64,000 nucleotides of DNA, from contig NZ_JAKNUT010000001.1 of assembly GCF_023155855.1 (NCBI RefSeq), positions 248,001 through 312,000 of the forward strand. The letters run 5' to 3'. This document shows positions 22,565 to 35,793 of the stretch, piece after piece. The notes under the pieces are model-generated. The model did not search any database and was not told where the DNA came from. It saw nothing but the letters and a program-made list of their open reading frames with translations. The stretch's first letter is position 1. Each line of letters opens with the position of its first letter. The translations under genes were made by a program, and so were the position numbers. The stretch comes from Microbacterium aoyamense (lineage in GTDB: Bacteria; Actinomycetota; Actinomycetes; Actinomycetales; Microbacteriaceae).

Positions 22565-22581
22565 CGAGCGATCCGTGCTCG
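22565..22581 (-). promoter_or_regulatory. GGA-loop hairpin at the 5' end of the fliP transcript
   Basis: On the minus strand CGAGC ACGGATC GCTCG: a 5-bp perfect stem with GGA in a 7-base loop, starting 5 bases after the -10 box. The same 17 bases occur at flgB (35776-35792) and a variant at fliH (31908-31924). It is a candidate CsrA site or an operator over the transcription start. Confidence 0.6.
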
Positions 22582-22586
22582 ACCCG

Positions 22587-22618
22587 ACTATCGCGACGGT
22601 CGCGTCAGGCCGTAACCG
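22587..22618 (-). promoter_or_regulatory. Sigma-28-like promoter of fliP-fliQ-fliR-flhB-flhA
   Basis: Minus-strand GGTTAC (22617-22612), 14-base spacer, GTCGCGATAGT (22597-22587). The -35 box abuts the fliO stop codon at 22620, so the operon is reset here. Confidence 0.85.
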
Positions 22619-22619
22619 C

Positions 22620-23018
22620 TCAGGCCACCGGCTTGAGCGACGTGCTCTCGCGATCGGCCGACGCGTCGGCATCCGCGTCCCACGCGGGCGCTGCCTCTTG
22701 CGTGTCGACGACGCTCACTCCATGCTCGGTGACGCCCAGGACGTAGCGGATGCCGCCGAACTCGGCGACGACCAGCTGGGCCTTGCTGCTGAGGCCCGAC
22801 CGGGCGACGACCGTGATCCGCTCCGGACGCGGCGCCGCGGCGGGAGGCGCGGGCCGCAGAGGGATCAGCGCCGAGAGCTTCTTCAGCGACGGCGTGAGCG
22901 CACCTCGGCCGGCACCTCCCGACTGCCGCTTCTTGATGCGGTGCGTCAGCCACAGCAGCAGGCCGAGCACCGCGGCGAGCGAGACGATCGCGCGGACGGC
23001 GATGAGCAGGTCCTCCAT
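22620..23018 (-). CDS. fliO: Flagellar biosynthesis protein FliO
   Basis: A 132-residue protein: one N-terminal membrane helix (LLIAVRAIVSLAAVLGLLLWLTHRIKK), then a small domain (ERITVVARSGLSSKAQLVVAEFGGIRYVLGVTEHGVSVVD), the usual FliO pattern. FliO helps FliP assemble. It begins two bases after fliN and ends at the fliP promoter. Confidence 0.9.
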   Translation of the reverse strand: MEDLLIAVRAIVSLAAVLGLLLWLTHRIKKRQSGGAGRGALTPSLKKLSALIPLRPAPPAAAPRPERITVVARSGLSSKAQLVVAEFGGIRYVLGVTEHGVSVVDTQEAAPAWDADADASADRESTSLKPVA

Positions 23019-23020
23019 GC

Positions 23021-23680
23021 TCAGGCGCTCTCCGCGGTGTCCAGGATGCGCTCGACACGGACCGCGAAGTCGCCGTCCGCGACGACCACCGTGCCGTAGC
23101 CGATGAGCCGGCCGTTGAGCTTGATGTCGGCGGGCGAGCCGGCAGCGCGGTCGAGTTCGACGACGCGTCCGGGTTCCAGCGACAGCACATCGCGCACGGG
23201 CATCCGGGTCCGGCCGATCTCGACGACGAGATCCATCTCGACGCCCGCGATGCGGCTCAGGCGCTGGGGGGCGGCGGGGCGCCCGGCCGCCCGGTCGTCG
23301 TCGATCCGCACGGCGGTGCGAGCGACCAGCGTGCCGTCGATGCCCACGAGGTCGAAGACCTCGGCGCCCGGAGCCGTGAACACCTCGGCGGCGATGACCT
23401 CCTGGCCGTCGCCGAGCGCGCCGGCTCCCAGGACGACGACGGCGGCCTCGAAGACGGGATGCAGGCGGTCGACCAGGTCCGCTTTGGGTGAGCCGTCCTG
23501 GAGCGCTCCGGGGTCGATGACCTGGATCGCGATCATCGCGCCCGTCGCGCCCGCGAAGGTGATGGCCACGGCGGTTCCGTCAGCGCCCGGGTCGGTGGTC
23601 GGGCTCGGGACGACGGGGTGTCCGAAGGGAAGCCGGCCGGCGATGGCCGCCGCGACGGCAGTCGCCTGGAAGGTGCTCAT
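23021..23680 (-). CDS. fliN: Flagellar motor switch protein FliN/FliY
   Basis: A 219-residue protein, longer than FliN alone (about 100-140). The last 80 residues are a SpoA domain (IAGVEMDLVVEIGRTRMPVRDVLSLEPGRVVELDRAAG, DIKLNGRLIGYGTVVVADGDFAVRV). The first 130 form an extra domain like the FliY position, but without a clear CheC phosphatase motif and without an EID-type CheY peptide. It builds the lower C-ring with FliM. The start overlaps fliM as ATGA. Confidence 0.9.
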   Translation of the reverse strand: MSTFQATAVAAAIAGRLPFGHPVVPSPTTDPGADGTAVAITFAGATGAMIAIQVIDPGALQDGSPKADLVDRLHPVFEAAVVVLGAGALGDGQEVIAAEVFTAPGAEVFDLVGIDGTLVARTAVRIDDDRAAGRPAAPQRLSRIAGVEMDLVVEIGRTRMPVRDVLSLEPGRVVELDRAAGSPADIKLNGRLIGYGTVVVADGDFAVRVERILDTAESA

Positions 23681-34680: not shown

Positions 34681-34684
34681 CGGA

Positions 34685-34993
34685 TCAGGCCTGCATCCTC
34701 ATGATGTCGTTGAACGCCGCGACGCTGCGGTCGCGGACGGCGACGACGAGATCGAGCGTCACCGATGCCCGCGCCGCGGCGATCGTCGCCTGATGGATGT
34801 CGGTGAGGTCGCCGGTGACGGCCTGGACCGCGAGTTCGTTGGACGTGGATTGGAGCTGCTGCAGATTCTCGACGGCGCCCGTGAGCGTCGTGGCGAACGA
34901 CGAGTCGGATGCCGCGGCATCCGCGCGCTCGAAGCTGAGGGCCGACAGCGATGCCGTGCCGCCGGTCGAGACGGGATCGATCGCGAGCGACAT
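34685..34993 (-). CDS. fliE: Flagellar hook-basal body protein FliE
   Basis: A 102-residue protein with the FliE pattern SFATTLTGAVENLQQLQSTSNELAVQAVTGDLTDIHQATIAAARASVTLDLVVAVRD. FliE joins the MS ring to the rod. Its ATG shares one base with the flgC stop. Confidence 0.93.
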   Translation of the reverse strand: MSLAIDPVSTGGTASLSALSFERADAAASDSSFATTLTGAVENLQQLQSTSNELAVQAVTGDLTDIHQATIAAARASVTLDLVVAVRDRSVAAFNDIMRMQA

Positions 34994-35385
34994 CAGCGGC
35001 GTCCGATCTGAAGCGCGGCTTCGTAGGAGGTCTTCGCGCGGTCGACGACGGCGGCGCTCGCCTCGTAGCCGCGCTGCGCGAGGATGAGCATGCTCATCTG
35101 GTCGCCGAGATCGACGTTCGGGTACTCCACGTACCCGTTCTCATCCGCATACGGATGCGTCGGGTCGTGGACCATCTTGGTCGGCGCCTCGGATTCCACG
35201 ACGCCGTCGACGAACACGCCGGGGCCGTCGGCGCCCGCACGCACGGTGACGAGCTTCTCGCGGAAGGGCTCCTCCCCCGCGGGCCGGGCCGTGTTGACGT
35301 TGGCGATGTTGTCGCTCAGCGCATCGAGCCACTTGCGGTGCACGTTCAGTCCCGTGCCGGCGATGCCGATCGCGTCGAACGTCAT
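34993..35385 (-). CDS. flgC: Flagellar rod protein FlgC
   Basis: A 130-residue proximal rod protein: FDAIGIAGTGLNVHRKWLDALSDNIANVNT and YPNVDLGDQMSMLILAQRGYEASAAVVDRAKTSYE. It overlaps flgB by four bases. Confidence 0.95.
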   Translation of the reverse strand: MTFDAIGIAGTGLNVHRKWLDALSDNIANVNTARPAGEEPFREKLVTVRAGADGPGVFVDGVVESEAPTKMVHDPTHPYADENGYVEYPNVDLGDQMSMLILAQRGYEASAAVVDRAKTSYEAALQIGRR

Positions 35386-35729
35386 GCCGAGGCCTGCCCG
35401 ATCGCCTTGGTGATGGACGTGGCCTGGCCGTCCAGCGCCTGCGTCGCGAACTGGAACCGCAGCACGGTGTCGATGTTCGAGAGGGTCTCGGTGTCGAGGT
35501 TCACGTTGTTGCCGTTGAGGCGCGTGGGTTCCAGCGAGCGCTCGGTCGTGGCATCCACGTCGCCGGATCCCGCGGAGACCGCGGAGCGCAGCGCGTCCTC
35601 GAACTGGACGCGCTTGGCGTGGTAGTCGGGGGTGTTGATGTTCGCGATGTTGTCGGCGATCGCTCGCTGACGCAGCGCAAGCCCATCGAGGGCGCTGGAC
35701 AGCGCGGTGGCGGTGACGGATTCGAGCAC
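35382..35729 (-). CDS. flgB: Flagellar rod protein FlgB
   Basis: A 115-residue proximal rod protein: ALDGLALRQRAIADNIANINTPDYHAKRVQFEDAL. Start is GTG 35729 with CCGGAG seven bases before. First gene of flgB-flgC-fliE-fliF-fliG, behind the promoter at 35799-35829 and a GGA hairpin at 35775-35793. Another GGA overlaps its ribosome site. Confidence 0.95.
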   Translation of the reverse strand: MLESVTATALSSALDGLALRQRAIADNIANINTPDYHAKRVQFEDALRSAVSAGSGDVDATTERSLEPTRLNGNNVNLDTETLSNIDTVLRFQFATQALDGQATSITKAIGQASA

Positions 35730-35774
35730 GGCGGCACTCCGGATGCTGGGGGGAAGCCGATCCGTGGCCAGACG

Positions 35775-35793
35775 TCGAGCGATCCGTGCTCGA
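35775..35793 (-). promoter_or_regulatory. GGA-loop hairpin at the 5' end of the flgB transcript
   Basis: Minus strand TCGAGC ACGGATC GCTCGA: a perfect 6-bp stem with GGA in the loop, starting 5 bases after the -10 box at 35799. The inner 17 bases are identical to the fliP leader hairpin. Confidence 0.62.

What the first reader, a model, noticed from the sequence alone, without database searches (positions are those of the whole stretch)
22565..35793. Near-identical GGA-loop hairpins at the 5' ends of the flgB, fliH and fliP operons
CGAGC-ACGGATC-GCTCG occurs exactly at 35776-35792 and 22565-22581 (minus strand), and TGAGC-ACGGACC-GCTCG at 31908-31924. Each begins 5-6 bases after the -10 box, so at the very 5' end of the mRNA. 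GGA in a hairpin loop is the CsrA signature, and csrA and fliW are in the same cluster. In known Gram-positive systems CsrA is tied mainly to flagellin; here rod, ring, export ATPase and gate operons may also be under it. An alternative is a DNA operator (inverted repeat CGAGC-N7-GCTCG) over the start site.
Basis: partly seen in the sequence, partly recalled or inferred. Interest (0 to 1): 0.88.

Follow-up and report, generated by a model that had tools for sequence, protein, structure and literature searches.

The report
Twin-hairpin CsrA leaders of flagellar operons
Three flagellum-building operons of this bacterium carry, just behind their predicted promoters, the same pair of GGA-centred inverted repeats, found also in most of the flagellated genomes of its order that were searched, and these predicted RNA hairpins likely let the RNA-binding protein CsrA control the building of the flagellar rod and export gate, not only of the filament.

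Summary
The three GGA hairpins are the only exact matches in the 3.9 Mb genome. A covariance model trained on flgB leaders alone finds the fliH and fliP leaders; its next best place in the genome is weak. The twin element lies at the predicted 5' end of the mRNA. It is in 92 of 92 readable flgB leaders of near relatives (window included). A hit of 30 bits or more occurs in 51 of 74 flagellated genomes of the order, in 0 of 6 non-flagellated ones and 0 of 60 genomes mostly outside the class. Loops read A-N-GGA, as CsrA sites do. csrA is in 74 of 74 flagellated order genomes and 0 of 6 others. fliC carries the known hag-type leader, with covarying stem. The twin stems hardly vary, so covariation is uninformative there. 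Best reading: a CsrA dimer bridges both loops. Binding is untested and the sign open; 5' position and 5'-end:RBS complementarity slightly favour activation, opposite to fliC. Precedents exist in other bacteria: a new variant of a known kind.

The parts
35799..35828 (-). predicted flagellar (sigma-28-like) promoter of flgB, GGTTAC-N14-TCGCGATAGT
   Evidence: pattern, 7 in genome
35776..35792 (-). flgB leader hairpin 1, CGAGC-ACGGATC-GCTCG, at predicted 5' end of mRNA
35755..35769 (-). flgB leader hairpin 2, GGCC-ACGGATC-GGCT
   Evidence: R1 model 57.7 bits over 35751-35794 (a training sequence)
35721..35740 (-). flgB ribosome-binding site and start (GGAGTGCCGCCGTGCTCGAA), complementary to hairpin 1
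31931..31960 (-). predicted promoter of the fliH operon
31908..31924 (-). fliH leader hairpin 1, TGAGC-ACGGACC-GCTCG
31887..31899 (-). fliH leader hairpin 2, GCC-ACGGACA-GGC
   Evidence: R1 39.4 bits over 31882-31926
22587..22617 (-). predicted promoter of the fliP operon (fliP to flhA, csrA downstream)
22565..22581 (-). fliP leader hairpin 1, CGAGC-ACGGATC-GCTCG
22543..22557 (-). fliP leader hairpin 2, GGCT-ATGGATC-GGCC
   Evidence: R1 41.4 bits over 22539-22583
38891..38920 (-). predicted promoter of fliC
38862..38883 (-). fliC leader hairpin with ACGGAT hexaloop (hag-type upstream CsrA site, predicted)
38840..38844 (-). fliC Shine-Dalgarno GGAGG, second GGA
17102..17350 (-). csrA, behind flhA
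   Evidence: PF02599
13809..14195 (-). fliW, CsrA antagonist family
   Evidence: PF02623
26471..26500 (-). same type of promoter before flbD/motAB, no GGA hairpin of this kind behind it
17047..17077 (-). same type of promoter before flgN, no twin element behind it

Best explanation
It is a conserved leader element of two GGA-centred inverted repeats, predicted to fold as hairpins at the very 5' end of the flgB, fliH and fliP mRNAs, and one CsrA dimer likely clamps both loops. Shown by sequence: the element, its place behind the predicted promoters, the A-N-GGA loops, and the presence of csrA and fliW. Inferred: that it acts as RNA, that CsrA binds it, and that FliW releases it. The sign is the least sure step. 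I commit to activation (about 55:45 against repression). Free CsrA would hold the 5' arm in its own hairpin, shielding the 5' end and keeping that arm off the ribosome-binding site to which it is complementary. The same free CsrA would repress fliC by covering its Shine-Dalgarno, as in hag. FliW would then flip both once flagellin is exported. The confidence given is for the CsrA-bound leader; with activation added it is about 0.4.
For: The model from flgB leaders alone finds fliP (41.4 bits) and fliH (39.4) in the own genome, next best 18.9. In 151 copies GGA is in both loops in 151 of 151, and A-N-GGA or AGGA in 151 and 149; loop position 2 takes all four letters. GGA-GGA spacing is 20-27 nt, mode 22-23, inside the published bridging range of 10-63 nt, optimum over 18 (PMC7652899, passages). 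GAGC starts 12-14 nt after the G of GATA in 85 of 99 flgB, 23 of 23 fliH and 26 of 26 fliP copies. csrA is in 74 of 74 flagellated and 0 of 6 non-flagellated genomes of the order. The fliC hairpin covaries: score 0.329 against 0.119 in shuffles, 0 of 500. CsrA keeps L4, R6 and R44 in the alignments (numbering and roles recalled; R44 also). Complementarity of the 5' end to the own RBS: Microbacterium flgB -22.9 kcal/mol against -12.5 (sd 3.4) for 158 RBSs of other flagellar genes, none as strong as -22.9.
Against: No binding, transcript-start or expression data. Stems of the twin element do not covary above shuffles (248 of 285 against 247.6; 277 of 340 against 276.7; likewise), and their near-invariant letters are more than a CsrA site is known to need (recalled). 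With 50 more bases the second hairpin is rarely the predicted fold (median stem probability 0.00-0.02) and the first only in part (0.13-0.39), although the 45-nt element alone folds as drawn. Leader folding energies are not unusual for fliP and fliH (z -0.05, 0.37) and mildly so for flgB (z -1.87). The 5'-end:RBS pairing is not convincing for fliH, and loop position 2 does not follow the start-codon base. In Microbacterium a third GGA lies 4-20 nt before the flgB start in 26 of 28 leaders, which would suit repression. 23 of 74 flagellated order genomes have no hit of 30 bits, and the flgB leaders read from families f14 and f17 lack the pair.
Confidence: 0.7

Rival explanations
1. Same RNA element and same ligand, but CsrA represses: it is tethered by the two upstream hairpins and reaches the Shine-Dalgarno, as in glgC and hag, so rod and export genes are held down together with flagellin. 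(Shares the CsrA core with the best explanation; only the sign differs.)
For: Repression is the prevalent published CsrA effect (PMC7652899, passages). C. jejuni CsrA binds the flgI, flaG and flaB leaders, and their proteins fall when fliW is deleted (PMC4894983, passages). A third GGA lies 4-20 nt before the flgB start in 26 of 28 Microbacterium leaders. The fliC leader has a GGA in the Shine-Dalgarno in 74 of 74.
Against: Outside Microbacterium only 32 of 63 flgB leaders have a GGA there, while the hairpin pair is kept. Repressing the basal body whenever flagellin accumulates would oppose completion of the export channel (inference).
Confidence: 0.32
2. A DNA operator or initial-transcribed promoter element: a protein reads the inverted repeats GAGC-N7-GCTC and GGCC-N7-GGCC in DNA over the start site.
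For: Arms are almost invariant in sequence, and the distance to the -10 box is nearly fixed. A pure RNA hairpin would be expected to drift with compensation.
Against: The unpaired middle is asymmetric and kept as A-N-GGA on the mRNA strand. Of 703 GAGC-N7-GCTC palindromes outside -10-like contexts in the fetched loci 16 have that GGA, against 135 of 165 behind a -10-like box. Of the 30 misses there only 12 were printed; none is at one of the 151 copies, and those I could place lie in coding sequence. Spacing of the two repeats varies from 20 to 27 bp, so their faces on the helix differ. fliC keeps the loop with different, covarying stems. Two of the six promoters of this type in the window have no such hairpin at all.
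Confidence: 0.12
3. A 5'-terminal stem-loop that only slows 5'-end-dependent mRNA decay, with no CsrA involved.
For: Hairpin 1 starts at about the predicted first nucleotide (start not mapped).
Against: Does not explain the constant GGA in two loops, the second hairpin, or the exact co-occurrence of flagella with csrA.
Confidence: 0.06
4. A CsrA sponge: early flagellar leaders titrate CsrA away from fliC, and regulation of their own genes is minor.
For: C. jejuni flaA mRNA titrates CsrA (PMC4894983, passages). Microbacterium has up to three strong copies.
Against: Structural operons would be low-abundance sponges (inference), and most genomes outside the genus show one strong hit.
Confidence: 0.08

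Closest known systems
hag leader of Bacillus subtilis, CsrA-FliW-Hag (PMC7652899, passages; PMC6529632, listing only)
   Same: Two GGA sites bound by CsrA, FliW antagonist, flagellar gene. The fliC leader here has this layout: upstream ANGGA hairpin plus GGA in the Shine-Dalgarno.
   Different: In hag the target is flagellin and one site covers the Shine-Dalgarno. The twin element sits on rod, export ATPase and gate operons, at the predicted 5' end, and is kept where the Shine-Dalgarno has no GGA.
flhDC leader of Escherichia coli (PMC7652899, passages)
   Same: CsrA binds two sites near the 5' end of a flagellar mRNA and protects it from RNase E.
   Different: flhDC encodes a master regulator; no homology of the leaders is claimed or was tested. 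A conserved hairpin pair of this form is not mentioned in the passages read.
ymdA leader of E. coli (PMC7492729, abstract and section list)
   Same: CsrA binding to two leader sites activates translation by undoing a structure that blocks the ribosome.
   Different: Not flagellar. Here the proposed blocking partner is the 5' end itself, and this is a prediction.
CsrA-FliW network of Campylobacter jejuni (PMC4894983, passages)
   Same: CsrA binds leaders of several flagellar genes besides flagellin, including flgI; flgH is enriched too.
   Different: GGAs lie near the Shine-Dalgarno, affinities for flaG, flaB and flgI are low, flgB is not enriched (1.6-fold), and no shared two-hairpin element is reported in the passages read.

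Membership tests
CsrA-binding mRNA leader | A-N-GGA in the loop of a short hairpin | tested here: met
   GGA in both loops in 151 of 151 copies; A-N-GGA or AGGA 151 and 149. Stems form when the element is folded alone but not reliably in the longer leader.
CsrA-binding mRNA leader | Two sites at a distance that one dimer can bridge (10-63 nt) | tested here: met
   20-27 nt in 151 copies
CsrA-binding mRNA leader | A CsrA with the RNA-binding residues in the same genome | tested here: met
   for the window; presence only in 74 of 74 flagellated order genomes
CsrA-binding mRNA leader | Compensatory stem changes with GGA kept | tested here: inconclusive
   Twin element: stems hardly vary, no excess over shuffles. 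fliC hairpin: met.
CsrA-binding mRNA leader | Direct binding by CsrA | not testable with these tools
   needs gel shift or CLIP
hag-type repressed leader | One GGA site overlaps the Shine-Dalgarno | tested here: inconclusive
   GGA 4-20 nt before the start: fliC 74 of 74; flgB 58 of 91 (26 of 28 Microbacterium, 32 of 63 other genera)
DNA operator | Palindrome kept while the loop letters drift | tested here: not met
   GGA kept in all 92 flgB leaders of near relatives and in the other copies, which were found by a GGA-rewarding model;
Any Rfam 15 family | Match to a curated model | tested here: not met
   0 in the window at gathering score; 0 with E up to 1 over 35690-35850

The most novel reading that the evidence does not exclude
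The twin hairpins are a CsrA-operated RNA switch. Their 5' arm is antisense to the operon's own ribosome-binding site, and CsrA holds it off. The same free CsrA therefore turns rod and export operons on and flagellin off, and FliW, freed when flagellin leaves the cell, reverses both. A whole order of Actinobacteria would time flagellum assembly by RNA in this way, with csrA itself at the end of one switched operon.
Probability: 0.3. Interest if true: 0.87.

Novelty: new variant of a known kind. Interest (0 to 1): 0.72.

Why it matters
How actinobacteria order flagellum assembly at the RNA level seems little studied: among the titles and abstract starts listed (8 of 8 papers; 1 of 1; 10 of 19) none is about CsrA in actinobacterial motility; I opened only one of them (PMC10746217, passages). 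A conserved RNA element on the rod and export operons would extend CsrA-FliW from flagellin homeostasis to the basal body. It would also give a compact natural pair, one CsrA with two leader layouts, in which activation and repression by the same protein can be compared directly.

Tried and rejected
A generic search for any two nearby GGA hairpins was useless: 794 in the loci against 759 in Markov-resampled sequence. It was replaced by the covariance model. Covariation of the twin stems was tried twice and gave nothing above shuffles in paired cells. Rfam gave nothing. csrA-less flagellated genomes were sought as a natural test: none of 74 in the order. Of 52 flagellated genomes outside the class 6 gave no csrA match, but no genome of that call has an R1 hit of 30 bits, so they say nothing. 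csrA leaders in relatives showed no clear hairpin; my script read only 13 of 31. Weaker extra R1 places (L191-L194, 28-30 bits) were fetched; their loops or contexts were not convincing and I count them as chance. In longer-leader folds the direction test is modest: enforcing the hairpins raises RBS openness by 0.08-0.20 against 0.04-0.09 with shuffled tails, and window fliP goes slightly the other way, 0.40 to 0.36. Start codons for some fliH and fliP rows were wrong; one search used corrected starts, but the duplex energies were not recomputed. The 30-bit cut-off for R1 was set after seeing that the best hit has 29.9 bits; at 35 bits the order count is 43 of 74. Rows dropped: fliC counts use 74 of 81 loci (N-terminus aligned); the pair count uses 50 distinct of 70 rows, leaving out L005 and L026 (wrong hairpin picked) and two rows with other loop lengths, and the hairpins had been picked by best stem, which leans towards pairing. 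Model R1 was built from 87 of 92 flgB leaders; the other 5 were mis-picked by my script and were then found by the model. In some searches, 74 of 89 flagellated genomes were searched, 15 of well-sampled genera being left out.
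Full report
OBSERVATION. In the whole genome (3,897,676 bases, 18 contigs) YGAGCACGGAYCGCTCG occurs only these three times. The promoter GGTTAC-N14,15-TCGCGATAGT occurs seven times, six of them in this cluster, before flgN, fliP, flbD/motAB, fliH, flgB and fliC, and once at a distant place. Gene names rest on Pfam matches for FliO, FliP, FliH (below its cut-off), the FlgB rod domain, FliS, flagellin, the sigma factor, FliG, FlbD, CsrA, FliW and FlgN and on order and look for the rest. 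That the genome is a Microbacterium is inferred: two genomes of its genus carry the same promoter sequences as the named Microbacterium loci L007 and L008.

A SECOND HAIRPIN. Reading the leaders shows that each of the three has a second inverted repeat with GGA in its middle, 22-23 nt after the first: GGCC-ACGGATC-GGCT (flgB), GCC-ACGGACA-GGC (fliH), GGCT-ATGGATC-GGCC (fliP). The fliC leader has one longer hairpin, GGCCC-ACGGAT-GGGCC, and GGA in its Shine-Dalgarno, which is the hag layout. flbD and flgN have the promoter but no such element.

RELATIVES. The 92 flgB leaders that could be read, the window's included, all hold the twin element: 87 picked by script, 5 mis-picked ones found by the model. 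Model R1 was built from those 87 flgB leaders only. It finds the fliP and fliH leaders of the window at 41.4 and 39.4 bits; the next best place in the genome has 18.9 bits, E 0.019. In Microbacterium the element is on flgB and on most fliP and many fliH leaders read. In the roughly 21-kb loci of other genera it is almost always on flgB alone (fliP often lies at or beyond the edge there); exceptions are fliH in the two Frigoribacterium loci L019 and L050 and one more gene in L049. In whole genomes most outside the genus show one strong hit. In L003, L093, L098 and L104 fliH has neither an exact promoter match nor the element, so promoter and element seem to come and go together. Of 96 exact promoter copies in the Microbacterium loci 70 are followed by hairpin 1 of the element, 1 by the fliC hairpin, and 23 at flbD plus 2 others by neither.

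DISTRIBUTION. FliP was found in 89 of 297 order genomes. Of 74 of these, 74 have csrA; of 6 without FliP, none has. R1 gives at least one hit of 30 bits or more in 51 of the 74 and in none of the 6 (43 of 74 at 35 bits; my counts from the table). I did not verify each of the 51 to lie at flgB. In 60 further genomes, 52 flagellated from outside the class and 8 non-flagellated from within it, the best hit has 29.9 bits; 46 of the 52 and none of the 8 have csrA. The 30-bit line was drawn after seeing that. Searches used stricter filters that lose weak matches. Flanks of 14 order genomes, mostly with weak or no hits, were then read. L181 gave no flgB. L195, a Microbacterium, has the element. The five leaders of family f15 hold a diverged twin, in 4 of 5 with hairpin 2 as GCGCC-ANGGANC-GGCGC. 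The two leaders read of f14 and L198 (f2) lack it, the three of f17 keep a single GGCC-ATGGAT-GGCC hairpin, and L199 (f9) keeps hairpin 2 only.

ANATOMY OVER 151 COPIES (99 flgB, 23 fliH, 26 fliP, 3 other). Loop 1 of seven letters: A 147 of 148, then any letter, GGA 148 of 148, then T or C in 146, then any letter. Loop 2: A 147 of 147, GGA 147 of 147, T or C in 146. Counting other loop lengths too, GGA is in both loops of all 151; the fliH, fliP and other copies were found by a model that rewards GGA. Spacing is 20-27 nt, mode 22-23. The distance from G of GATA to GAGC is 13 nt in 23 of 23 fliH and 25 of 26 fliP (12 in the other), and 12-14 in 85 of 99 flgB; 5 flgB copies differ and in 9 my script saw no -10 box. 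If the start lies where sigma-28-type promoters put it (recalled; not mapped here), GAGC begins at about the first nucleotide. The inner four pairs of each stem hardly vary, so pairing does not exceed shuffles: 248 of 285 cells against 247.6, and 277 of 340 against 276.7; the count agrees (82.6% paired against 84.0% shuffled). This is a null result, and it leaves unexplained why the stem letters are kept. The fliC hairpin gives the contrast: of 74 leaders, 70 have a stem of 4 or more pairs around the loop and all 74 have GGA in the Shine-Dalgarno. On 50 distinct rows 83.8% of cells pair against 70.3% in shuffles, 48 cells are changed on both sides against 18.1, and the covariation score is 0.329 against 0.119, none of 500 shuffles reaching any of the three. 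Two further measures are weaker: pairs with a change on both sides 5 against 4.5 (294 of 500 reach it) and further pair types 19 against 15.9 (30 of 500). So an A-N-GGA loop on a changing stem is kept on fliC. The same loop on the twin element points to the same ligand. That is an inference.

LIGAND. csrA (17102-17350) and fliW (13809-14195) are in the cluster. The csrA product matches 9 solved CsrA/RsmE-family sequences at E 1.6e-13 to 2.1e-10 and keeps the N-terminal LVLTRR and the IHRAEI strand with R44 (residue numbers and roles recalled, R44 also). csrA follows flhA, so it is probably at the end of the fliP operon. fliW lies behind flgN and the flgK- and flgL-like frames, whose promoter carries no element. 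Two relatives hold a strong extra copy far from the flgB leader, before an NlpC/P60 hydrolase gene (L189, L190), and one before a glycosyltransferase gene (L049), each again just behind a CGATG-type -10 box.

MECHANISM. Folded alone the 45-nt element forms both hairpins (median stem probability 0.90-0.99). With 50 further bases stem 1 falls to a median of 0.13-0.39 and stem 2 to 0.00-0.02. In window flgB the 5' end pairs over ten bases with the start codon region. The complementarity of the first 20 nt to the own RBS is -22.9 kcal/mol on average in 27 Microbacterium flgB leaders, against -12.5 (sd 3.4) for 158 RBSs of other flagellar genes there. It is -16.5 against -11.7 (sd 3.1) in 64 other-genus flgB leaders, -19.8 against -13.1 (sd 3.9) in 25 fliP, and -14.9 against -13.1 (sd 3.1) in 23 fliH, the last not convincing (some fliH and fliP starts wrong). 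The RBS is less open in real leaders (0.22-0.35) than with shuffled tails (0.43-0.46), and opens by 0.08-0.20 when the hairpins are enforced, against 0.04-0.09. Since the FlgB start codons are also under protein constraint, and loop position 2 does not follow the start base, this is a hypothesis, not a result. It fits two published precedents: CsrA shielding the 5' end of flhDC (PMC7652899, passages) and CsrA undoing a ribosome-blocking fold in ymdA (PMC7492729, abstract and section list). It also makes sense of the circuit: with flagellin still inside, FliW is occupied and CsrA is free, which should favour finishing the basal body while fliC is held down (inference from the B. subtilis scheme).

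AGAINST. Without binding data CsrA remains an inference. The opposite sign is nearly as likely: most flgB Shine-Dalgarnos of Microbacterium contain a third GGA (26 of 28), and C. jejuni CsrA lowers other flagellar proteins when FliW is missing (PMC4894983, passages). A DNA operator is disfavoured by the constant asymmetric GGA, variable spacing and the fliC parallel, but the frozen arms keep it alive.

LITERATURE. Nine full-text searches were answered. No title or abstract start that they listed is about CsrA sites in actinobacterial flagellar leaders; several lists were capped. The study of flagella across Actinobacteria names CsrA and FliW once each, in a list of query proteins (PMC10746217, passage). 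The library lacks most subscription papers.

Noticed in passing
L189:1458-1503 and L190:1512-1556 (minus): Strong extra copies of the twin element (45.3 and 44.7 bits), on another contig or about 1 Mb from the flgB leader, before an NlpC/P60 hydrolase gene; possibly a rod-passage hydrolase that joined the same control.
   Followed up: partly
L049:2234-2278 (plus): Twin element (48.8 bits) before a family-2 glycosyltransferase gene in the flagellar region, perhaps flagellin modification.
   Followed up: partly
L088 (G000:C1:847231-847261, minus): Seventh genome copy of the flagellar-type promoter, outside the cluster, before an unidentified reading frame; leader without the element.
   Followed up: no
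window 17351-17369 (minus): Three GGAs within about 20 nt before the csrA start (GGAGGGCGGATCAGGA), which could serve autoregulation.
   Followed up: partly
genus sample: Only 20 of 149 genomes of the genus have an exact match to the promoter pattern, so flagella, or at least this promoter form, look patchy in the genus.
   Followed up: no
order sample; phylum sample: csrA follows flagella exactly in the order sample (74 of 74 against 0 of 6) and nearly so outside the class (46 of 52, against 0 of 8 non-flagellated genomes of the class), as if its main task here were flagellar.
   Followed up: partly
fliC leaders, L002-L111 and window: A hag-type leader, with a covarying GGA hairpin and GGA in the Shine-Dalgarno, is present on the flagellin genes read (70 of 74 with a stem of 4 or more pairs).
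   Followed up: yes
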